This document shows positions 3,304-51,559 of a stretch of 51,559 bases of DNA, one piece after another. The translations under genes and the position numbers were made by a program. The notes under the pieces are model-generated. The model searched no databases, had not been told where the DNA came from, and saw nothing but the letters and a program-made list of their open reading frames with translations. The stretch is from positions 1 through 51,559 of the forward strand of contig JAFGST010000010.1 of the NCBI GenBank assembly GCA_016934475.1, written 5' to 3'. Origin of the DNA: Candidatus Aminicenantota bacterium. Lineage in GTDB: Bacteria > Acidobacteriota > Aminicenantia > UBA2199. Within the stretch, counting starts at the first letter, position 1, and each line of letters starts with the position of its first letter.

Positions 3304-6300
3304 GTGAGCGATCCCGGAGGCGGGAGCCAAGAGCTCGGTGGCGAGATTTTTTTCTCCTGCGATCCTTCGGGAACCGCGATCGACCGCCTGATGCCCTTCA
3401 GGGTGAAACGCTTCCTGCTGGTGGCCAGCCTCTACGACTGTTTCATGCTGGAGGAAGACGGCCGCCTGCAGGACCTGCTGCTGCAGACCTACCAGAAATG
3501 GCACCTGGGCTACGTACCGCAGTTCGTCCGGGTCAGCGGCGGCGATAACGCCCTGCGGCGGATCGCCGAAGAGAAATTCGACCTGATCATCGCGCTCATG
3601 CGCCTGGGCGACATGGATCCGTTCACCTTCGGCCGGAAGGCGAAGGAGATCGATCCGCACCTGCCTGTCGTCGGGCTGGCCTACAACACCCCGGAATTGC
3701 AGCGCCTTCTCGAACTGGATGACGGTAGCGCCGTCGACCGGGTCTTCGTGTGGCAGGGGGACAGCCGGGTGCTGCTGGGGATAATCCAGTTCGTCGAGGA
3801 TCGCCGGAATGCCGACAACGACACCGAGGCCATCGGGGTGCAAAGCATCCTGCTGGTCGAGGACTCCATCGGCTTCTACTCCTCCTATCTGCCCCTGGTC
3901 TTTTCCGTCCTGCGCGAGCTGACCGAAAGCCTGCTCAAGGAGGACCTGACCTTCTCGCAGAAGCTTTTGCGTCAGAGCGCCCGCCCCCGCCTGCATCTGG
4001 CCACGACCTTCGAGGAGGCGGTCGCCGTCTTCGACCGCTTCAAGGACCATCTCCTGGGAATCATCAGCGATATCCGTTTTCCCCGGCAAGGAGTCCTGGA
4101 TCCAGAGGCCGGGAGGCGGTTTTTGCAGAAAGTCCGCTCCGAAAAGCCGCAGCTGCCCATCCTGGTGCAATCCAGCGACGACGGGGCGGAAGCGATGGCG
4201 CAAGAATCCGGAAGCCGATTTCTCTCCAAGTTATCGCCGACCCTGCTGGCCGACCTGAAGCGCATCCTGCGCTCGTTCTTCGGTTTCGGCGACCTGCTGC
4301 CGGATCCGGGAGCCGGCCAGGCCGGGTGGCGCTTCGCCAATATGGACCAGTTGTACTCCAACCTGTCCGAGCTGCCCGCGGATTCACTGAACCGGATGCT
4401 GGCCAGCGGGGAACTCGACCGCTGGCTGCGGGCCAGGACCGAGTTCTCGCTGGCCAACGCGATCAAGGATCTGCTTGTTAAGGAGGGCCTGCCCCTCGCC
4501 TCCCCGCAAGAAGCGATCAAGGAGTTGATCGCCGCTTCCCGGACCGCCAGCCGCCGCGGTTCCATTGTCCCCTACTCGCGCCATTTCCACGAGGAGTACT
4601 CGAGGTTCAGCATCATCGGCGGCGGTTCGATCGGCGGCAAGGCCCGCGGCCTGGCCTTCATGGACCGCATCCTGGCGAAATACTTCGATTCCGGGAAATT
4701 CCCAGGGACAAGCGTTTCCATTCCCCGCACCCTGGTGCTGGGCACCGACGTGTTCGATGACTTCATGAAAGAGAACGATCTGCTTCCCCAAGCCGTGGAG
4801 GATCACTCCGACGGCCACATGGCCAGCCTGTTCATCAAGGCGAACCTGCCGGGAAAGGTCGTGGGCGATCTTCGCGATTTCATCACCCATGTCACCGTGC
4901 CCCTGGCGGTCCGCTCCTCCAGCCTGTTGGAAGATTCCCTCTACCAGCCGTTCGCCGGGATTTATGCCACCAAAATGCTGCCGAACGACCAGAGCAAGAA
5001 CGACATCCGCTTCCTCAACCTGGTCAATGCCATCAAGTTCGTTTATGCCTCGACGTTTTTCCGCCAGGCCAAGGCCTACATCGCCAGCACGCCTCACCGC
5101 GTGGAGGACGAGAAAATGGCCGTCGTCATCCAGCCGGTCGTGGGGCATCTGCACCCGGACAGCTTTTATCCCGATTTTTCCGGGGTGGCCCGCTCCTACA
5201 ATTATTATCCCGTCGGTCAGGCCCGTCCCGAGGACGGGGTGGTCAATGTCGCCCTGGGCCTGGGCAAGACCATCGTCGACGGGGGCGTTTCCCTGCGCTT
5301 CACCCCGGCCTACGCCGGGGTGTTGCCGCAATTCACCTCGATCAAGGAGATGTTTCGCTTTTCCCAGCGCGATTTCTATGCCGTCGCCATGCGCCGCGCC
5401 GATTCGGTCGCCTTCCTTGACGAAGACCAGTACCTGGTCAAGCAGGGGCTGGACAAGGCGCAAAAGGACGGGGTCCTGACGTTCCTAGCCTCGACCTATT
5501 CGCCGGAGAACGACGCCGTGTACGACGGCATCAGCTTTGAGGGGCCGCGAATCATCAATTTCGCCCATATCCTGAAGAATAAGGTCTTCCCCCTGGATGC
5601 GATCACCATGCACCTGCTGCGGCTGAGCAGCGAGGCGATGAATTGCGCGGTGGAAATGGAGTTTGCCGTTACCATCGATCCGCAGAACGCGCTCCCCGCC
5701 CATTTCGCCGTTCTTCAGGTCCGCCCCCTGGTCATCCAGGACGAGCTGGTGGAGGTGGATCTGGATGAAGGGCAGATGGAGTTCGCCTTCTGCTTCAGCG
5801 ATCGCGTGCTGGGCAACGGCACCAACCGGGAGATCCGCGACATCGTGTTCGTCAAGCCGTCGTCGTTCGACGCCGTCCGCAGCCCGCAGATCGCCGGCGA
5901 AGTCGACGCGCTCAACGGCCGCCTGCGCGCGGGAAAGGCGCCCTACCTTCTCATCGGACCGGGCCGCTGGGGCAGCAGCGATCCCTGGCTGGGCATCCCG
6001 GTCAAGTGGAGCCAGATCAGCGGAGTGAAGGTCGTGGTCGAGGCGTGCCTGCCCAACATGAATGTGGATCCCTCCCAGGGATCGCACTTTTTCCAGAACA
6101 TGACCTCGCTACGCATCGGCTATTTCACGGTCGCCTTGGACCGCGAGCACGGATTCATCGATTGGCCGTGGCTGGAGGCCCTGCCCGCGGCGGAAGAAAC
6201 CGAGTTCCTGAAGCGTGTCCGCCTGCCGGAGCCTGTCACGGTGGTAATCGACGGCCGCAAAAGCAGGGGGATCATCCTGAGGCCGGGAGCTCCGGTTGGG

Positions 6301-6312
6301 GGAAATGGCTGA
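3304..6312 (+). CDS. Tandem receiver-like domains plus PEP/pyruvate-binding (PPDK-N type) ATP-grasp protein
   Basis: A 1002-residue protein of unknown function. Residues about 37-165 resemble a receiver domain but lack the acidic pair and the phospho-aspartate (FDLIIALMRLGD). Residues about 180-325 form a receiver with key residues intact: E186/D187 in LLVEDS, D256 in IISDIRFP and K309 in FLSKLSP. From about residue 430 comes the ATP-grasp fold of pyruvate phosphate dikinase and PEP synthase (GGGSIGGKARGLAFMD, then PLAVRSSSLLED and the closing LQVRPL). The C-terminus carries GPGRWGSSDPWLGIPV from residue 885 and a GSHFFQNMTSL motif. There is no phosphohistidine swivel domain and no PEP-binding TIM barrel, so it is not a PEP synthase. 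The start is GTG after GGAG. It overlaps the following phosphoesterase by eight bases and has a paralogue on the opposite strand at 7212-10394. Phosphorylation-controlled ATP-dependent phosphotransfer or ligation is inference. Confidence 0.8.
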   Translation: MSDPGGGSQELGGEIFFSCDPSGTAIDRLMPFRVKRFLLVASLYDCFMLEEDGRLQDLLLQTYQKWHLGYVPQFVRVSGGDNALRRIAEEKFDLIIALMRLGDMDPFTFGRKAKEIDPHLPVVGLAYNTPELQRLLELDDGSAVDRVFVWQGDSRVLLGIIQFVEDRRNADNDTEAIGVQSILLVEDSIGFYSSYLPLVFSVLRELTESLLKEDLTFSQKLLRQSARPRLHLATTFEEAVAVFDRFKDHLLGIISDIRFPRQGVLDPEAGRRFLQKVRSEKPQLPILVQSSDDGAEAMAQESGSRFLSKLSPTLLADLKRILRSFFGFGDLLPDPGAGQAGWRFANMDQLYSNLSELPADSLNRMLASGELDRWLRARTEFSLANAIKDLLVKEGLPLASPQEAIKELIAASRTASRRGSIVPYSRHFHEEYSRFSIIGGGSIGGKARGLAFMDRILAKYFDSGKFPGTSVSIPRTLVLGTDVFDDFMKENDLLPQAVEDHSDGHMASLFIKANLPGKVVGDLRDFITHVTVPLAVRSSSLLEDSLYQPFAGIYATKMLPNDQSKNDIRFLNLVNAIKFVYASTFFRQAKAYIASTPHRVEDEKMAVVIQPVVGHLHPDSFYPDFSGVARSYNYYPVGQARPEDGVVNVALGLGKTIVDGGVSLRFTPAYAGVLPQFTSIKEMFRFSQRDFYAVAMRRADSVAFLDEDQYLVKQGLDKAQKDGVLTFLASTYSPENDAVYDGISFEGPRIINFAHILKNKVFPLDAITMHLLRLSSEAMNCAVEMEFAVTIDPQNALPAHFAVLQVRPLVIQDELVEVDLDEGQMEFAFCFSDRVLGNGTNREIRDIVFVKPSSFDAVRSPQIAGEVDALNGRLRAGKAPYLLIGPGRWGSSDPWLGIPVKWSQISGVKVVVEACLPNMNVDPSQGSHFFQNMTSLRIGYFTVALDREHGFIDWPWLEALPAAEETEFLKRVRLPEPVTVVIDGRKSRGIILRPGAPVGGNG

Positions 6313-7201
6313 GCTGCCGGGAGGCGACATCCCTCCCGCCGAAGGACCGTTCCTATTCGCCAGTGACCTGCACGGGCGCGAGGAGCGCTACCTGAAGCTG
6401 TTCTCACTCGTCCAGGCCAGGCGGCCCAAGGCTGTTTTCCTGGGCGGCGACCTTCTGCCCTCAGGCACGCTGCTGTTCGGCAACAGCCCGGTCTGCGGAG
6501 ATTTCCTGGAAGATTTCTTGCTGCCGGGGCTGAGTCGTCTGCGCGAGAGCCTGCACGACGACTATCCGCGGCTGTTTCTGATCCTGGGCAACGACGATCC
6601 GCGCCAGGCCGAGGAAAGCTTCCTGCGCCGGGAAGCGCAGGGGCTGTGGAGCTATGTTCACGGGCGCAAGTCCCCATTGGGGCGATACGCCGTCTACGGC
6701 TACGCCTGCGTACCGCCCACGCCGTTTATGCTGAAGGACTGGGAGCGCTACGACGTTTCGCGCTTTGTCGATCCGGGTGCCGTCCCCCCCGAGGAGGGGC
6801 GATACAGTGTCGTCGTTCCCGAGGAGGAACGGGGCTTTCCCACCATCCAGGACGACTTGGTGCGGCTCGCGGGCGCTGATCCCATGGAGCGGGCCATTTT
6901 CCTGTTCCATTCCCCCCCGTACCGTACGGCGCTCGACCGGGCGGCCCTGGACGGCCGCCAGGTGGATGGCGCCCCCCTCGACGTGCACGTGGGCAGCATC
7001 GCAATCAAGCGATTCATCGAGGAGCGCCAGCCCCGGGTCACCCTGCACGGCCATGTCCACGAGTCGGCGCGCCTGACCGGCTCCTGGCAAGAAACGATCG
7101 GCCGGACCCATTGCTTCTCCGCGGCCCACTCCGGCCCCGAGCTGGCCGTGGTCTCGTTCGACCCGGCGAATCCTGGGGAGGCAGCCCGGTGCTTGCTATG
7201 A
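6305..7201 (+). CDS. Calcineurin-like metallophosphoesterase
   Basis: A 298-residue cytoplasmic enzyme of the calcineurin-like phosphoesterase superfamily. The full set of two-metal motifs is present: FASDLHG (D-x-H), LGGDLLPSG, LGNDDPRQ (G-N-D), FHSPPYRT and LHGHVHES (G-H-x-H). The substrate class (nucleotide, phosphoprotein or phosphodiester) cannot be told from these. The ATG at 6305 follows GGGGGA and lies inside the end of the ATP-grasp gene (eight-base overlap), so the two proteins are translationally coupled and probably act together, perhaps with the esterase removing what the ATP-grasp protein adds. A TTG nine bases upstream is an alternative start. The gene converges on the second ATP-grasp gene. 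Confidence 0.88.
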   Translation: MAELPGGDIPPAEGPFLFASDLHGREERYLKLFSLVQARRPKAVFLGGDLLPSGTLLFGNSPVCGDFLEDFLLPGLSRLRESLHDDYPRLFLILGNDDPRQAEESFLRREAQGLWSYVHGRKSPLGRYAVYGYACVPPTPFMLKDWERYDVSRFVDPGAVPPEEGRYSVVVPEEERGFPTIQDDLVRLAGADPMERAIFLFHSPPYRTALDRAALDGRQVDGAPLDVHVGSIAIKRFIEERQPRVTLHGHVHESARLTGSWQETIGRTHCFSAAHSGPELAVVSFDPANPGEAARCLL

Positions 7202-7211
7202 CCGCGGCAAC

Positions 7212-10200
7212 TTATTGGCTTTTAAGGGCCAGGGGGCGGGCGGCGTTGGTCGCGGCGTCGATCTTGACGGCGAAGCTGGTCTTCTTGGCGATATCCTCGT
7301 CGGTCAGCAGGTGATAGTCGAGCAGCCCCCCGGATTTGTAGCCGGTGCGCGAGTAGTTGATCTCGGCCAGGCACAGGCTCCAGCCCTCGAGCCAGAGAAC
7401 AAGTTCCTGCTTCTGCCGCTCGCTCCCTTGGAAGTGGATCAGGAGGTCGATGTCGCTGCCAGGACCGGCCGTGGCGTTCTTCGTCGAGCCGAAGACGTAC
7501 ATGGCCTTGACGCCGAAGCGACCCGGATCAAGCTGGCCGGCGATTCGCTCGGCCATGCGCAGCCGCCAGCCCCAATGGTCGTCGCTGGCCGTCTCGGAGA
7601 CCTCGACCCGTTCCCGCTCGGCACTCGCCTGCGAGTCGGGCGTGGCCAAAAAGCCCAGAGCCTCGCCTAGGTCGGCGTTCATCAGCACCCGCAGCACCCT
7701 GCCGCTGGCGGCGCGCGGAACCTCGATGACGCGGATGGTGTCGGCGAGGGCCGCCGACTCGGGCAGGATGTCGGGGAAGTAGTTTTGGGCATCCAGCAGG
7801 AAACGCTCGTTGAAGATGATACCCGGGTCGTCGGGGTAGAGGGGCAGGTAGCGGATCGATGATTCGACCAGGTCCTGGAAAAAATGGGTGCCGAACGACA
7901 GCTCCGGGACGTAGTTGCCCTTCTTGCGGGCGATCTCGATGAGGGCGGCGGTGTTGTTGAAATCCGAGTAGGTTACGGGCACGCCGAGCTTGATGTCCCC
8001 GCGGCTGCCCCAGCGCCCCGGCCCCATGAGGATGAACCGGCGCTTGGGCAGGAGCTTGTTGAGCTTGCCGACGGCCTGGCCGACCTCGATCATCTGCTCA
8101 CTGCGCTCGAGCAGGGAATAGTTCTCCGGGTCCACGTAGACAATGTGGGTGATGTCGGGAAGCTTGCCGTTCGAGATGTAGCGGTTGGCGGTGAAAATGA
8201 TCCGGTCCTCGGCGATGTCCTTGGGGATGAGGCTGGCCACGTTGCCCGCGGTCGAGCTTTGCGGCCGGCACTGGAGAAGGTAGAGCTGGCGGCCGTCGTG
8301 GGCGAACTCGATGTCCACCGGGGTGCTCATCTTCTCCTGGAGCGTCTTCAGCATGCACTGCAGCTGCTTGACGAAGGGGGTGCGCGAGATCCAGCCCTCG
8401 AAGGTGACGAACAGATTCGCCTTGCTGAAGTCGAGGCCGAGGGCCGAGGGGGAATAGATGTGGTCGTCCTCGTAGACGGAGACGATATTCTCGATGCCGG
8501 GATATTGGGAGCCGCACTCTGTCAGCAGGGCGGTGATCTCCATGGACTCGAACGAGCAGGTCTTCAGGTTGATGACGTCGATGCGCCGCGGCGAGTAGCG
8601 CATTGTCTCGTCGGCGGTGACGTTGACGCGCAGGTTGGGGATGCCCGGCGAGATCAGGATCGGGTAATCGTCGCTGACGCGGTCCACGGCGCGGGTGCCC
8701 AGGCCGGGGACGAGGCGGGCCAGCCCGTCCTCGCGCTTGATGCGCGGCGACCAGCGGAACTCGTTGTTGCTGAAGGCGACGCCGGCGAAGGCGGGGAGAT
8801 AGTAGTCGCCCACTTTTTGCCCGACCACTTCCTGGATCATGATGCCCATCTCCTCATGGAAGTCCAGCAGCCCGCGCTCGGCGCGGTATTCGATGGGGTC
8901 GGGGCCGAAGATGGAGGCGTAGACCTCGGCGATGGCGTCGGTCAGCGCATCCAGCCGCTCCTGTTTCGTTCCCTGGTTGGCCAGGAACAGACTCTTGTAT
9001 TTGCCGGAAAAGGCCATGCCCATGCGGTCTTCCAGTAGGCTCGAGCTGCGCACGATCAGCGGCTTGTTGCCCAGATCGTCGAGGGCCATAGACAGCCCCT
9101 TGATGATCTCGATGGGGAAATGGGCGTTTTTCAGCAGCTGGACGACATTATGGTACTCGAGGCGGATCTGGTCGATTTCCTTGTATTTCTGTTCGTTCAC
9201 TTCCTCGAGGTTGTTGTAGCTCAGGAAGTTCAGGATGGCGTCGGTGGTGATGTACCAGGTCTTGGGGAACTTGAGCTCGCACAGGACCTCGGAGTGGTCG
9301 CCCGGCTTGGTCAGGATTTTCTGCGCCAGGAACAGCCCGGCGCTCTTTCCTCCCAGGCGGCCGTAGCCGTTGGCGGGATAAATGATGCGCTGCACGAGGT
9401 CGTAAAAATGGCGCACCTCGATGTGGTTCTTGGCGATGTTGATGAAATCGAGCTGGTCGGAGAAGAAGCGGCGGATGAGCGAGACGCGAAGCCCCTTCTC
9501 CATGGGGGGCGAGAGCTCATACGTGCCGCCGGAGATGTAGTGGTAATGGGTGATGGCGTTGATGACGTCGACCAGGGGCATGTCGATGTTGTTGATCGCC
9601 CGGCTCAGGAAGCTGGCCTTGTCCTCCTGGATCCACTTCTGGATGCGACCCAGAATATCCGAGTCGCTCAGGTAGCGCGCCGCGATGCGGAACGTCTTGT
9701 CGCTGAGCTCCAGGAGCTCCAGCTGCGATTTCTTCTGGCTGGGGCGGTTCATGTCGTCGCTCATCTCGGTCTGGGCGGCGCCCTGGTCCTTGCTCAAAGA
9801 CTTCAAAAGTTCCTTGGCCTCCATAACGCCGTTCCAGAAGAGGTGGTAGACCATCTTGCGACCCAGGTGGATGTAGAGATTCTGGTCGGTGCGGCGCAGC
9901 AGGTCGATGACGACCATCCATTCCTTCTTGATCTTGTCGCTGAGGTCCTTCTGCGCCGTCTCCCATTCGCGCGAGACCTGCTCCAGCTTGAAATGCAGGA
10001 CGGTGCGGCCGATGCGCTCGGCGATGGTCTGCAGCAGTTTTTGCTCGTCCTTGAGGAAATAGCTGTTTTCCGTCTGTGGGACGTCACGGGTGTAGGAAAC
10101 CTCGATGAAGCCGATGACCTTCTCCTCCTCCTTGATGTCGACGCGCTGCACGCGCGTCGACGGTGTAAATCCCGGGCTCTGGTAGGTGTGGTCCTCGTGG

Positions 10201-46351: not shown

Positions 46352-46852
46352 ATGGCCAAAGTCGTTTACAAAGTCGGAGACGATGTCTCCACCGACATCA
46401 TCTACCCGGGACGGTTCATGGCCACGGTGTTGCCGAGCGAAACGCCGCAGTATGCCTTTGCCGATTCCCCCGAATTCAACGCCAGGATCAAGAGCGGGGA
46501 ATTTCCGCCGCAGAGCATCATCGTGGCCGGAAAGAACTTCGGCTGCGGCTCATCGCGCGAACAGGCCGCCTCCTGCCTGAAGGGTCCCGATTTCGTGGTC
46601 GTTGCCCGCAATTTTTCGCGCATCTTCATGCAAAACGCCATCAATCTCGGCCTGAAAATGGTCATCTGCCCGACGATCGAGACCAATGAGGGGGACGAGC
46701 TGGAAATTACCGCCGACCAGGTGGTCAACAAGAACTCGGGCAAGATTTTTCCCGTGATCCCCATGCCCAAGGCGCGGCAGGCGATCATCGACGCCGGCGG
46801 CCTGATCCCTTTCGCCCGCCAGCTGGTTGTCGAGGCCCAGGGCAAGGGCTGA
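46352..46852 (+). CDS. 3-Isopropylmalate dehydratase/homoaconitase family small subunit
   Basis: A 166-residue swivelling-domain subunit (LeuD/AksE type). The active-site loop GCGSSREQA is intact, and the start MAKVVYKVGDDVSTDIIYPG is typical. The substrate-recognition loop near residues 21-31 (GRFMATVLPSE) differs from the YLRT or YLVY versions of known isopropylmalate or homoaconitate enzymes, so the substrate is open. A decayed copy of this gene occurs at 49498-49604. It is separated from the next gene by five bases. Confidence 0.92.
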   Translation: MAKVVYKVGDDVSTDIIYPGRFMATVLPSETPQYAFADSPEFNARIKSGEFPPQSIIVAGKNFGCGSSREQAASCLKGPDFVVVARNFSRIFMQNAINLGLKMVICPTIETNEGDELEITADQVVNKNSGKIFPVIPMPKARQAIIDAGGLIPFARQLVVEAQGKG

Positions 46853-46857
46853 GCCCG

Positions 46858-47676
46858 TTGGGCCTGAACTTCAGGGAGGCGCTGTCCGCCCTCTCCCGGG
46901 CGCTGCCTTTGGTCCTTTTCCGGGCCGGGATTTTCGTGGTCGGCGGCTTCGCTGCCGTCATTTTTTTCGGCATGCTGCTCCTCGTCCTCCGCCCAAACGG
47001 CGGCGCTGGCCCGCTTGTCGCCCTGCTCCTCGCCTTGCCAATCCTCCTCGGCGGCTGGGCCAGTGGCCGGCTGCTGCAACGATTCTTTCTATTCCGCCAC
47101 CGGGCGGCCATGCTATACCTTTTCTCGGAGCAGAGACCCGCGGCCCCGGGGCTAGCCGGCGCCCTGCAAGAAACGGAGCGCTCCATCCCCGACCATGGCG
47201 CCTGGTTGGCCTTGAACCATGCCATAGGCAGAGCCTTTGCGGGCTTTCCCGGCGATGGTTCGGCGGCGATTACCGTCCATCCGGTCACCGCTGAGGTCCT
47301 CGGCCAGGCCGTCCTGGCCCTGGCATTCTCCCGGGGCGGAACGGACTTCAAGCATTCTATCCGGGAGGGGCTGGCTCTTTTTTTCTGCAACGGGGATGAA
47401 ACAAGGTGCCTGGCGCGGCGCTGGCTGGGATTCTCGGTCGCCGGCCTCACGCTCCTTTTCCTCTGCCTCGCCTTGCCCAATTGGTTTTTATTCAGCAGCG
47501 TTGGTGCGCCGGTCTGGATCGGCATGGCCCTGGCCGCAACCATCGCCTGGCTCCTGCAGCAGGCCTTTGTTTTCCCATTTGTTCTGGCTGGCGTCAGTGG
47601 TGCGCTCCTGGCCGCCACCCGCGGGCATACTCCCGACCCGGACCTGGTCGAAAAGCTGGCCACAGTCCTGCCGTAG
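46858..47676 (+). CDS. Unknown polytopic membrane protein (272 residues)
   Basis: No family is recognised. Hydrophobic segments lie at about residues 14-44 (LPLVLFRAGIFVVGGFAAVIFF), 50-68, 193-215 (WLGFSVAGLTLLFLCLAL), and 220-250. The start is TTG five bases after the small hydro-lyase subunit stop; no strong ribosome site, so the operon provides coupling. It may form the last gene of the five-gene operon, but codon use and domain give no hint of linkage to its chemistry. Confidence 0.6.
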   Translation: MGLNFREALSALSRALPLVLFRAGIFVVGGFAAVIFFGMLLLVLRPNGGAGPLVALLLALPILLGGWASGRLLQRFFLFRHRAAMLYLFSEQRPAAPGLAGALQETERSIPDHGAWLALNHAIGRAFAGFPGDGSAAITVHPVTAEVLGQAVLALAFSRGGTDFKHSIREGLALFFCNGDETRCLARRWLGFSVAGLTLLFLCLALPNWFLFSSVGAPVWIGMALAATIAWLLQQAFVFPFVLAGVSGALLAATRGHTPDPDLVEKLATVLP

Positions 47677-47685
47677 CGGCCTATT

Positions 47686-47783
47686 TTAGTCGCTCACTTC
47701 GATGGTCTTTATTTCGCTCCTGCCGAAATACTGGGTGTGGTATATGCTCTGGGCGACCGTCGGCATCCAGGTGAAGCGGCCCA
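47686..47783 (-). pseudogene. Decayed copy of the alpha-2-macroglobulin C-terminus
   Basis: Read on the minus strand, this ends with a stop codon at 47686-47688 and encodes a near-copy of the last 31 or so residues of the intact gene that ends at 49634: GRFTWMPTVAQ here against GRFTWMPAVAQ, and HTQYFGR against HPQYFGR. The match stops at about 47783-47790, where an in-frame TAA follows upstream. It is a remnant, not a gene; the flanking sequence to 47837 shows nothing else. Confidence 0.8.
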
Positions 47784-47837
47784 ACCACAAGCTGACGGAC
47801 CTTTACTCCAACCCCTGACCAAATAAAATGGTCCAAC

Positions 47838-47866
47838 TTGAATTGGGGAATAAATCTTGTTAGACT
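47838..47866 (+). promoter_or_regulatory. Promoter of the glycosyltransferase-like gene
   Basis: TTGAAT (47838-47843) and TAGACT (47861-47866) are 17 bases apart, 28 bases before the ATG at 47895. A GGAG is 14 bases before the ATG, which is rather far. Confidence 0.45.
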
Positions 47867-47894
47867 TTGCCGAATTGGAGAATTCACCCTGATC

Positions 47895-49310
47895 ATGGAG
47901 AGAACAGACAAAACCAAATCCGCCATTAAAAATGACTGGAAAGTACTTCTCTTGCTGCTTGTTCTGGCATTGGGAATTTTTACCCCCTTTGTGGGGAAAG
48001 GTTTTGTCACAGATGATTTCGTCCATATCCGGCACGTTCAAAAAGGCGGCAATCCTTTAACTATCTCCCCCTTTGGGATCTACCGGCCGGTTGTCAGTCT
48101 GAGTTTTTACATCAACCACAAACTGTTCCAATTGAATGCCTTTCCTTATCGAATCACCAACCTGCTGTTGCATCTGTTGGTGATTGTGCTGTTGTTCATC
48201 TTTACCAAGACATTTACCGGGGACCGTTCGCTAACATTCCTAGCGGTTCTGGCATTCATCCTTACTCCAAAAGCACACACCATGGCAGTCAACTGGATAT
48301 CCGGCAGAACCGAATTATTAATGGGAATATTCAGTTTACTGGCCATCATCAGCTGGCTCCAGTATGAGTCCCAGCACAAAAAAAGATACTTTCTTTTGTG
48401 CATGACAGGCTATTTCCTGGCGGTGCTGAGCAAGGAGAATGCCGCTTTATTACCGGCACTTCTTTTTTTCATCTCATCCTCCTGGAAAATAAGTAAAAAG
48501 CGAATCATCGAAATTTCACTGATGTTTTCTGTTTTGGGGGCGGTGCTCCTGTTAAGATATTCTTTGGGAGCATTGATGCCGGTCTCCGGCGACGTTCATT
48601 ACAATCTGCTGATTCCAATAGGAACCATCCTGGAAAATATCATTAACTACTTTTTCCGAAGCATTCCGTCGGTGTTTTTATTGATCCTGGCGGTCTCCAT
48701 CCCCATGCTGATTGCCGGTAACCGAAAGAAGGTGAAAGGGATTCAAGCCCATGGTTCCCCCCTCTCCATCAGATCGGTATTGTTCTCCTGCATATGGTTC
48801 CTGATGTTTATCATTCCGGTCTCCCCCATCAGGATGAGAAGTGAATTATACGTCTATTTTGCCGGTTTTGGATTTTGTATTCTGGGGTCCCAAATCTTGA
48901 TCAAAAACCTGAAGGCCGATTTTTTTACCAAAAAGAGAATCAATGCTCCCCTGATTGGGGGATTGGTTGTGTATATCCTGCTAGCAGGGGCCTATATCAT
49001 CAATGGAAATATTCAATTCCTTCGCAAATCACATTTCTCAAATCAATTTTTACAAGAAATGATCCGTCAAGTGGAAATTACCCCAGATAACAATTTTCTC
49101 TATATAAAACCGGAAGACCGGAACACCGAAAAATGGGTACAATATGTATTCCAGGGGTATTTTGACATTATCGTGAAGGTGATTTACAATCGGGAGAACC
49201 TGTCCGGCCGGATGGCGTATGAGGAAGATTTTTCAGATCACAAAAACAAAACCACTTATAAGGTAAAGTATCTCGGCGGGAAACTGAAATTTATCCAAGA
49301 ACTCCCCTAA
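47895..49310 (+). CDS. Polytopic membrane protein, GT-C glycosyltransferase-like
   Basis: A 471-residue protein with about ten transmembrane helices (for example LLLLLVLALGIFTPF, LLLHLLVIVLLFIFTKTF, FSLLAIISWL, YFLLCMTGYFLAVLS, LLLILAVSIPMLIAG) and a soluble C-terminal tail. The first loop holds an acidic pair in GFVTDDFVHIRHV, similar to the DD/DE motif of GT-C lipid-linked sugar transferases, and PKAHTMAVNWISGRTELLMG resembles the TMTC/GT39-like family, so a sugar transfer from a polyprenol donor is likely. I start at the ATG at 47895. The gene is visibly AT-richer than its neighbours with different codon choice, and it sits between decayed copies of the two adjacent genes, suggesting horizontal acquisition. 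Confidence 0.75.
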   Translation: MERTDKTKSAIKNDWKVLLLLLVLALGIFTPFVGKGFVTDDFVHIRHVQKGGNPLTISPFGIYRPVVSLSFYINHKLFQLNAFPYRITNLLLHLLVIVLLFIFTKTFTGDRSLTFLAVLAFILTPKAHTMAVNWISGRTELLMGIFSLLAIISWLQYESQHKKRYFLLCMTGYFLAVLSKENAALLPALLFFISSSWKISKKRIIEISLMFSVLGAVLLLRYSLGALMPVSGDVHYNLLIPIGTILENIINYFFRSIPSVFLLILAVSIPMLIAGNRKKVKGIQAHGSPLSIRSVLFSCIWFLMFIIPVSPIRMRSELYVYFAGFGFCILGSQILIKNLKADFFTKKRINAPLIGGLVVYILLAGAYIINGNIQFLRKSHFSNQFLQEMIRQVEITPDNNFLYIKPEDRNTEKWVQYVFQGYFDIIVKVIYNRENLSGRMAYEEDFSDHKNKTTYKVKYLGGKLKFIQELP

Positions 49311-49353
49311 TCAACCACCCGTTGAATCTCACCTTGAAAACCCTGGGGATGAT

Positions 49354-49491
49354 TTATTTTTTAGGTGTCATCAATAAGTTTTTCCAGAACCAACTCCAGA
49401 CCCGGTCAATTGTTATCCCGCCGGCGGTTTTCATCCGCTCCCGCAAATCGACGTGGATCAGCGGCAATTGTATTCCGGAAAAAGGTCTTTG
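49354..49491 (-). other. Possible orphan C-terminal coding fragment
   Basis: The minus strand is open for 45 codons between a TGA and a TAA (stop at 49354-49356). The translation contains LPLIHVDLRERMKTAGG and RVWSWFWKNLL, which reads like the end of a real protein, but no proper start or family is recognised and chance cannot be excluded. It sits between the AT-rich gene and the decayed hydro-lyase copy. The bases 49311-49353 hold nothing. Confidence 0.3.
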
Positions 49492-49497
49492 TCATGG

Positions 49498-49604
49498 AGC
49501 GAATTTCCGCCGCAAACCATTATCGTCGCAGGCAAAAACTTCCCGATCATCGCCCTGCACAAAACCCGACAGGCCATCATCGCTACCGGCGGCTTTGCCG
49601 AGCA
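49498..49604 (+). pseudogene. Internally deleted copy of the hydro-lyase small subunit gene
   Basis: The frame reads SEFPPQTIIVAGKNF and then PIIALHKTRQAIIATGGF. The first part matches GEFPPQSIIVAGKNF (residues about 50-64) and the second PVIPMPKARQAIIDAGG near the end of the intact small subunit at 46352-46852. The middle of the protein, including the GCGSSREQ active-site loop, is missing. The joint lies where the intact gene has two similar stretches (KNF and KIF), suggesting a deletion between short repeats. Neither end has start or stop signals. The 29 bases after it lead directly into the intact alpha-2-macroglobulin gene. Confidence 0.85.
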
Positions 49605-49633
49605 ATCACTAAATTTCCGACCTTTTTTCTTCG

Positions 49634-51559
49634 CTATTCGACCACTTCGACGGCCATTATCTGGTTCCTGCCGAAATACTGGGGGTGGTACATGCCCTGG
49701 GCCACCGCCGGCATCCAGGTGAAGCGGCCCGAGTACATGGCTTTGATGAAGTAGACGAAGCGCATCGCCCCCCGCATGGAGTAGGTATAGAAGACCAGGC
49801 GGTCGGCGAAGTTCTCTTGGCGCACCCATGGCGTGCGATAGATGCCACTGTGCTTGGTGTTGAATTCCTTCAGCGAGCGCGTCGTGGCGATATCCTGGCG
49901 CAGCAGCTCGAAGCCGGCGGCCAGCGGCTCGTCGATCACGCCGTAGGGAACCTCCTTGTCCGAGATGACCAGAAGCTCAACCTGGTAGACCTGGCCGCGC
50001 TGGAAGGCCTCCGTTTTCTCCCCTTTCTCGTTGTATACCTGGCGCTGGATATCGATGCCGCGGCTTTTCTTCCCGGCCCGGCCCAGCTTCCAGGTCAGCT
50101 CGCTGGTGACATAGACCGGCTGGTCGGCGCTGACCGTGACCTCGAACGGCCCCGGCCTCTCCCCGAGCGGCTTGCGGACCCGCAGGACGTCGCGGGCATT
50201 GGCGAACTCCTTTGCCGCCTTTTCCCCCAGCAGGCCGATCTCGGCCCTGCGCGCCGTCGTTTTCTCCACCTGCCTGAGGAATTCATCCATGGCGCAGAGG
50301 ATCCAGAAGTTGGTCTGGGTCGTATTCCAGCAGTGCGGCTCGGCCTCGAGGAGCCAGTGGATGATGCGCTCGGCCAAGACGTGCTCTGTCTCCACCTCGA
50401 GGACGGCCTGCAGGAGCAGCGCCGTGGCGAAGCGCGAGGAGTAGAAGGGGAAATCGCGGTGGTATTTGAATTCACCGGCATCGAAATAGGCGAAGTCGGC
50501 CTCGACCTGCAGGCTGTTGTTGAACTCGCCCAGCATGGTCTTGACCAGGCCGGCCTCGATCCCCTGTTTGTGCATGGCGCGATAAAGGAAAACCTTCCCC
50601 GGCAGGGGCAGGCTGTCGCGCTCGGAAGCCAGCTTCCGCAGCTTTTTGTTGTCGGCATTCTTGTGCAGGCTCAGCACGAATTGGTAGAAGCTTTCGCAGG
50701 TCTTGTCCAGGCTGGCCCGCTGCAGGTAGCCGGACAGCTTCTGCACCAGCCGCGGATCGACCTTGTAGTCGTGCTCCCGGGCCAGATGCAGGCTCCACAG
50801 CACGTAGGCGGTCAGGTAATCGGACGAATACTGGCCGCCGCGATAATATGACAGCGCTCCTTCACCGTTCTGGAACTCGGGGATGATCTTCAGATAGCTT
50901 TCGATCGACTCGCGGATCTGGGCCTGATCGAGGCCCAGATCCAGCCGCTCGGCCAGCTGCGGGCTGAGGGCCAGGAAGGGCATCACCTTGGAGGCCCGTT
51001 GCTCGAGGCATTCATAAGGATAGAAAACGAGCTTCTTGGCGATGTTGACCGCCGGCCTGAGCAGGGAGGGGGTGGCCGTGACGGCGATGGCCTGCGCCTC
51101 CGCATCGCCTTGCGGTTCGATCGTCTTCTTCATGGCCTTGCCGCTGGCGAAGTCGAGCAGGGTCTCGCTGACCAGGCGATCGGTCACCGGCAGCTTTTTC
51201 TCCAGACCATCCTTGTCGACGGCGCTGAGCGCATAAAAGGTGATCGTGGCCTCGCCGATGCGACCGGCCAGGAAAGGGAAACGGAACAGGCCGTTGCTCC
51301 TGGGGTCGAGGGTACCATCGGCTTGCGCCGCGCCGCCGACGGCGATCCCCTCGGGCTTGATCCACAGGGAGAAGGGGAGCTTTTTCCCGGTGCGGTTGCT
51401 GAGCTGCACTCCGGCCCGGAACTCGTCGTCCTGGCGGGCGAACTCGGGCATGGCCTCGGAGATGAGCAGGTCCTTGCTGACCAGGAGCTTTTTTTCGGCG
51501 CTGCCGAAGCGATCCTCGCTGTACGCCACGGCCATGATGCGGTAGGTCGACAGCTGGTC
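49634..51559 (-). CDS. Alpha-2-macroglobulin family protein, C-terminal part (5' end outside window)
   Basis: At least 641 residues of a bacterial alpha-2-macroglobulin; the frame is still open at the last base, so the N-terminus lies beyond. The visible part begins in a macroglobulin domain (STYRIMAVAYSEDRFGSA), carries the thioester motif CLEQ (bases 50999-51010) in YPYECLEQRASK, then the alpha-helical thioester domain and ends with the receptor-binding-like domain (WMPAVAQGMYHPQYFGR). Such proteins trap attacking proteases in the periplasm; the intact Cys and Gln mean the covalent trap should form. The stop is at 49634-49636. A short decayed copy of the C-terminus occurs at 47686-47783. 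The usual partner gene for penicillin-binding protein 1C is not in view and could lie upstream. Confidence 0.92.
   Translation of the reverse strand, partial: DQLSTYRIMAVAYSEDRFGSAEKKLLVSKDLLISEAMPEFARQDDEFRAGVQLSNRTGKKLPFSLWIKPEGIAVGGAAQADGTLDPRSNGLFRFPFLAGRIGEATITFYALSAVDKDGLEKKLPVTDRLVSETLLDFASGKAMKKTIEPQGDAEAQAIAVTATPSLLRPAVNIAKKLVFYPYECLEQRASKVMPFLALSPQLAERLDLGLDQAQIRESIESYLKIIPEFQNGEGALSYYRGGQYSSDYLTAYVLWSLHLAREHDYKVDPRLVQKLSGYLQRASLDKTCESFYQFVLSLHKNADNKKLRKLASERDSLPLPGKVFLYRAMHKQGIEAGLVKTMLGEFNNSLQVEADFAYFDAGEFKYHRDFPFYSSRFATALLLQAVLEVETEHVLAERIIHWLLEAEPHCWNTTQTNFWILCAMDEFLRQVEKTTARRAEIGLLGEKAAKEFANARDVLRVRKPLGERPGPFEVTVSADQPVYVTSELTWKLGRAGKKSRGIDIQRQVYNEKGEKTEAFQRGQVYQVELLVISDKEVPYGVIDEPLAAGFELLRQDIATTRSLKEFNTKHSGIYRTPWVRQENFADRLVFYTYSMRGAMRFVYFIKAMYSGRFTWMPAVAQGMYHPQYFGRNQIMAVEVVE

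What the first reader, a model, noticed from the sequence alone, without database searches (positions are those of the whole stretch)
46352..51559. Foreign AT-rich gene inserted between decayed duplicates of its two neighbours
Left to right: intact hydro-lyase small subunit, decayed alpha-2-macroglobulin tail (47686-47783), the AT-rich glycosyltransferase-like gene, decayed hydro-lyase small subunit (49498-49604), intact alpha-2-macroglobulin. The order matches a tandem duplication of the hydro-lyase to macroglobulin segment with the foreign gene at the joint, followed by decay of one copy of each. This is a readable scar of gene capture without a recognisable transposase or integrase.
Basis: seen in the sequence. 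Interest (0 to 1): 0.6.

Follow-up and report, generated by a model that had tools for sequence, protein, structure and literature searches.

The report
Recurrent gene-insertion hotspot with duplicated flanks
In a genus of uncultured Aminicenantes bacteria, the point where two genes meet end to end has repeatedly taken in unrelated genes, and nearly every time a copy of a neighbouring gene's end was left behind as a scar; the window shows one such event.

Summary
A 103-nt copy of the alpha-2-macroglobulin (A2M) 3' end (83%) lies left of an AT-rich glycosyltransferase-like gene, and a broken leuD-like copy lies right of it.

Comparison with 15 congeneric genomes (Candidatus Aminicenantes) shows a hotspot, not a single accident. 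Three genomes are empty: in two, orf272 and A2M overlap tail to tail by 11 nt; in one they are 20 nt apart. Twelve carry different DNA there (glycosyltransferase, GH1 + transposase, cNMP-fumarase, beta-propeller, dCTP deaminase and others). Ten of the twelve have an A2M-tail remnant directly after orf272 or after an earlier insert. One genome carries two inserts separated by such a remnant. Remnants of the orf272 side beside the intact A2M occur in two to four genomes. A second locus (G015, 174-nt duplication, empty in sister G008) shows the same signature.

[quoted passage not shown] The gene overlap favours survival of insertions that duplicate it. The recombination route is inferred, and whether the cargo is foreign rests on composition.

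The parts
46352..46852 (+). intact hydro-lyase small subunit (LeuD/DmdB family)
   Evidence: Pfam Aconitase_C; NCBIfam TIGR02087 above its cut-off; ortholog in 15 of 16 genomes of the genus including G000
   Evidence: ORF; tblastn 37-57% identity at the same place after leuD in all congeneric loci that reach it; no Pfam or NCBIfam match
47687..47789 (-). T': decayed copy of the A2M 3' end (left copy of the duplicated junction)
   Evidence: 83% over 103 nt to 49635-49737; nhmmer E 2.7e-23
47895..49310 (+). AT-rich insert gene, 471-aa GT-C glycosyltransferase-like membrane protein (PMT_2)
   Evidence: Pfam PF13231 28.1 bits against cut-off 26.1; GC 0.432; no close relative in genome contigs; at most 33-34% identity in the genus
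49501..49593 (+). D': internally deleted copy of leuD (right copy of the duplicated segment)
   Evidence: two adjoining pieces, 83% over 42 nt and 76% over 54 nt; profile hits
49611..49633 (.). possible remnant of the native orf272-A2M spacer beside the intact A2M
   Evidence: resembles the spacer of empty G006 when read by eye with one gap (sequences); ungapped test 11/20, p about 0.05
49634..51559 (-). intact 3' part of A2M; gene runs off the contig end; right border of the hotspot
   Evidence: Pfam bMG10, A2M, TED_complement; 75-79% identity to relatives

Best explanation
The place is an insertion hotspot between two convergent genes whose ends touch or overlap. Foreign DNA enters with duplication of the junction ('insertion with long target duplication'). 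The left copy keeps orf272 whole and leaves a truncated A2M tail (T'). The right copy keeps A2M whole and leaves a truncated orf272 or leuD-orf272 piece. The spare ends then decay. In the window the duplicated stretch ran from inside leuD through orf272 into at least 103 nt of A2M; the second orf272 copy was deleted and the glycosyltransferase gene sits between. Shown: anatomy, recurrence with different cargo, empty alleles, remnants on both sides, a serial insertion, a second locus with an empty sister. Inferred: the duplication arises by recombination through junction homology; either a circle carrying cargo plus a junction copy enters by a single crossover, or incoming DNA pairs by homology on one side and joins illegitimately on the other. 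Also inferred: selection keeps mainly insertions that duplicate the junction, because in the overlapping arrangement others would truncate a gene end.
For: Empty sites: G008 and G012 (genes overlap by 11 nt...TTACTCCCTGA...), G006 (20 nt). Different DNA at the same junction in 12 genomes. A2M-tail remnants by profile search in 8 genomes, E 2e-5 to 7e-41; no other place scored better than E 0.18 except one inverted copy in G001. A shorter remnant in G002 scores above 2000 of 2000 random windows, and G015 has the same sequence apart from one base. G011 reads cNMP-fumarase / T' / beta-propeller / intact A2M. Orf272-side remnant beside A2M in G005 (112 nt), G014 (15/20 nt, p about 1e-4), probably G003 (13/20, p 0.004). 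In G005 the two junction copies match over 230 nt (91%) against about 80% to the nearest empty relative. Second locus: G015:C10 67571-67744 and 68778-68951 (96%) flank a 1.03-kb insert; sister G008 is contiguous there.
Against: The route of recombination is not shown. G007 (3.2 kb, GC 0.28) and G010 (at least 8 kb, no A2M found) show no duplication, so it is not obligatory. D' is not closest to the window's own leuD (second piece 46/54 to G013 against 41/54 to own), so the duplicated DNA may be old or from another lineage. Some remnants share a cargo by descent (cNMP-fumarase in G002, G015, G013 and G011 diverges like leuC), so independent events number about 3 to 6, not 10. Two other convergent junctions with inserts show no tail duplication. 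The genomes are draft metagenome assemblies.
Confidence: 0.66

Rival explanations
1. One ancestral insertion at the base of the genus created T'. Later cargo was swapped by ordinary homologous recombination in the flanking genes, so most scars are one inherited scar.
For: The cNMP-fumarase insert is shared by four genomes at divergences like leuC. The G002-G015 identity is high from the end of orf272 through the insert into about 100 nt of A2M, then drops. Several T' are no closer to their own A2M tail than to others.
Against: G011 has its remnant on the far side of cNMP-fumarase, a separate event. G005 copies resemble each other far more than any relative. G000 alone has a leuD copy. G008, nested among filled genomes, is cleanly empty.
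Confidence: 0.2
2. A tandem duplication of leuD-orf272-A2M tail happened in the window's lineage, and the AT-rich gene was inserted independently at the new joint.
For: Final order and orientation in the window fit.
Against: It needs two coincident rare events in each of several lineages; no congeneric locus shows a junction duplication without cargo.
Confidence: 0.08
3. A site-specific integrative element uses the A2M 3' end as its attachment site and restores the gene end, as integrases do at tRNA genes.
For: All remnants begin at the A2M stop codon and cover 54-163 nt.
Against: No integrase in the inserts examined; the only recombinase seen is an IS200-like Y1 transposase in G005. Duplications also cover orf272 or leuD (G005, G000), lengths vary and there is no shared cargo.
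Confidence: 0.06

Closest known systems
Insertion with long target duplication (Nobusato et al. 2000 Gene, described in PMC1643837 and PMC3031569)
   Same: An accessory gene present in one genome and absent in the relative, flanked by long direct repeats (here 100-230 nt) made of host gene sequence present once in the empty relative; no transposase needed.
   Different: Described there for restriction-modification genes in Helicobacter pylori strains; here cargo is metabolic, glycosyltransferase or unknown, one overlapping convergent junction is hit repeatedly, and scars are old and half decayed.
Hotspots of horizontal gene transfer without mobile elements (Oliveira et al. 2017, PMC5635113)
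   Same: Different accessory genes between the same two conserved genes in related genomes, mostly no recognisable mobile element, signs of recombination in flanks.
   Different: Those are defined in species with many strains; here one junction is compared across species, and the junction carries target-duplication scars.
Transposed Arabidopsis genes with flanking direct repeats (PMC2869330)
   Same: Moved genes flanked by direct repeats of genic, non-transposon sequence matching the target site.
   Different: Plant; repeats mostly shorter; ectopic recombination from a known parental site.
Integrative elements at gene 3' ends
   Same: Duplicate the 3' end of a host gene.
   Different: Need an integrase and a fixed core; not found here.

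Membership tests
Insertion with long target duplication | Insert flanked by long direct repeats of target sequence | tested here: met
   Window, G005 230 nt, G015 second site 174 nt
Insertion with long target duplication | Related genome has the target once and no insert | tested here: met
   G008, G012, G006 at the A2M junction; G008 at the second site
Insertion with long target duplication | Linked to restriction-modification genes | tested here: not met
   Pfam on inserts finds PMT_2, GH1, Y1 transposase, cNMP-lyase, propeller and dCTP deaminase families; an association in the original description, not a structural requirement
HGT hotspot (Oliveira et al. 2017) | High diversity of accessory genes between two conserved neighbours | tested here: met
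   At least seven unrelated contents in 12 genomes
HGT hotspot (Oliveira et al. 2017) | Statistical excess of transferred genes over a whole-genome null | tested here: inconclusive
   Only a partial control: 19 convergent junctions compared, few with inserts
Site-specific integrative element | Integrase or recombinase in the insert | tested here: not met
   None in the inserts examined by family search; Y1 transposase only in G005
GT-C glycosyltransferase (PMT_2) | Match above the Pfam gathering score | tested here: met
   28.1 against 26.1 bits; no solved-structure relative, no NCBIfam match; activity untested

The most novel reading that the evidence does not exclude
The orf272-A2M junction works as an integrase-free cassette site: once an insert is flanked by two junction copies, ordinary recombination between them could release a circle of cargo plus one junction copy, which can re-enter any cell of the genus at the same junction. 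That would explain changing cargo, serial scars, and a cleanly empty species nested among filled ones.
Probability: 0.2. Interest if true: 0.65.

Novelty: new variant of a known kind. Interest (0 to 1): 0.45.

Why it matters
Here one junction in one genus preserves a series of such joints at different stages of decay, with empty alleles for comparison. It extends insertion with long target duplication beyond restriction-modification genes and gives a simple reason, overlap of two gene ends, why such insertions would be the survivors.

Tried and rejected
A donor for the glycosyltransferase was sought in genome contigs (nothing) and in 34 family genomes (43% over a piece, about 31% over the full length). 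Dating inserts by high identity between species was rejected as general proof of transfer, because cNMP-fumarase diverges like leuC; only the propeller (G004-G011, 92% against leuC 83% and leuD 78%) suggests recent transfer. Overlap as a strict requirement was rejected: the second G015 site is not a convergent overlap, and G006 has a spacer. Deciding between single crossover and one-sided import from copy divergence at the second G015 site was inconclusive, because G008 itself seems to carry a diverged tract there. Outgroup leuD loci lack the orf272-A2M arrangement, so the ancestral state could not be polarised. PADLOC found no known defence system in the G007 island.

Full report
OBSERVATION. 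The window (contig C150 of a 2.57-Mb draft genome) reads, left to right near its end: CoA-transferase, leuC-like large subunit, leuD (46352-46852), an intact 272-aa membrane-protein-like ORF (46858-47676, here orf272), a decayed copy of the A2M 3' end (47687-47789), an AT-rich PMT_2-type glycosyltransferase-like gene (47895-49310), a broken leuD copy (49501-49593), and A2M on the minus strand from 49634 to the contig end. Base composition confirms the contrast: the insert gene has GC 0.432 against a mean of 0.610 (SD 0.048) for 37 called ORFs.

RELATIVES. Fifteen genomes of the same genus were found. orf272 follows leuD in every locus that reaches it. In G008 and G012 orf272 and A2M overlap tail to tail by 11 nt: the A2M stop and the orf272 stop share the sequence TTACTCCCTGA; in G006 they are 20 nt apart. 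These are the empty sites. Twelve genomes hold other DNA there: cNMP-binding fumarase-like lyase (G002, G015, G013, G011), a roughly 413-431-aa protein without a Pfam match (G014, G001), beta-propeller (G004, G011), GH1 glucosidase plus IS200-like transposase (G005), a 3.2-kb GC-0.28 island with a dCTP deaminase (G007), a DUF4412-like protein (G003, weak match), at least 8 kb of other genes (G010), and the glycosyltransferase (window). G009 could not be judged.

SCARS. A profile of the last 300 nt of A2M finds remnants in eight genomes, each starting at the A2M stop codon, 58-163 nt long, E from 2e-5 to 7e-41, directly after orf272 or, in G011 and G004, directly before the propeller gene. One further inverted piece lies in G001. 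The best other match has E 0.18. G002 and G015 keep a shorter remnant, of which the G002 copy scored above all 2000 random windows. So ten of twelve filled sites have the scar. In G003, G005, G013 and G014 the remnant still supplies the orf272 stop codon. The mirror remnant, the end of orf272 beside the intact A2M, is 112 nt in G005, about 20 nt in G014 and probably G003; the window instead has the leuD piece and perhaps the old spacer. The duplication therefore spans the junction.

HOW MANY EVENTS. Inserts shared by several species can be inherited: cNMP-fumarase identity (89-92%) equals leuC identity for the same pairs. Separate events are needed at least for cNMP-fumarase, propeller (both in G011 with a remnant between), G005 (its two junction copies match each other at 91%, the nearest relative at about 80%) and the window (only one with leuD). 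I estimate three to six independent duplicating insertions plus two non-duplicating ones (G007, G010). G008, placed beside filled G015 and G002 with support 100 and 96, is cleanly empty, which suggests loss by recombination or replacement.

CONTROLS. Tail copies near their gene are rare: 13 hits from 604 genes, most explained by paralogs, repeats or very short matches; the strong remainder are this junction and a second site. At the second site, G015:C10 66953-68951, a DUF454 gene keeps its end, a 1.03-kb insert follows, then a second copy of its last 174 nt (96%); sister G008 has the region uninterrupted. A further 400 kb of G015 gave more direct repeats, for example 175 nt (85%) at 103079-103780 of contig C17 around a small ORF between convergent genes; these were not checked against empty relatives. 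Two other convergent junctions with inserts show no duplication.

INTERPRETATION. The pattern matches 'insertion with long target duplication', described by Nobusato et al. for restriction-modification genes in Helicobacter pylori (as cited in PMC1643837, PMC3031569), at a hotspot of the kind described in PMC5635113. The overlap of the two gene ends gives a selective reason: DNA entering an overlapping tail-to-tail junction can leave both proteins intact only if the overlap is duplicated. The recombination route (circle and single crossover, or one-sided homology with an illegitimate second joint) is not settled. The insert's origin is not known: closest relatives are 30-33% identical over most of the protein (43% over one 180-aa piece), in the same genus or family, and no solved structure or named subfamily matches.

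LIMITS. All genomes are draft metagenome assemblies; gene calls in the control contigs are simple longest-ORF calls; remnants are short, so their trees are not resolved; identity windows show mosaic flanks, which complicates dating.

Noticed in passing
L030 (G007:C4), 7194-9801: GC-0.28 island of about 3.2 kb at the same junction with a dCTP deaminase and two unknown ORFs; sister G006 is empty. The last 14 codons of A2M are AT-rich yet similar in protein sequence, as if the A2M end had been replaced with the island. No PADLOC match.
   Followed up: partly
L027 (G005:C255), 7864-8892: IS200-like (Y1) transposase gene flanked by short inverted repeats inside the insert; looks like a RAYT-type element beside a GH1 glucosidase.
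   Followed up: partly
G015:C10 66953-68951 (L086): Second insertion with a 174-nt target duplication, at the 3' end of a DUF454 gene; empty in sister G008.
   Followed up: yes
G015:C17 103079-103780, 267092-269869, 329026-330266, 386179-390114: Further direct repeats of about 90-400 nt around small ORFs or gene ends; possible additional cases, not compared with relatives.
   Followed up: no
L023 (G001:C8, reverse orientation), 5289-7067: Two A2M-tail remnants in opposite orientation around one insert gene, with an inverted copy of that gene's upstream region; suggests a later inversion or inverted duplication.
   Followed up: partly
window 51467-51559 and G000:C60 3-95: A2M runs off the contig end; contig C60 starts with an overlapping 31-aa stretch only 84% identical, so the two contigs may come from different strains or the overlap is an assembly fault.
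   Followed up: no
L028 (G010:C55): orf272 is present but the orthologous A2M was not found in this genome (only a distant paralog); contig GC is 0.51 against about 0.61 in several congeners.
   Followed up: no
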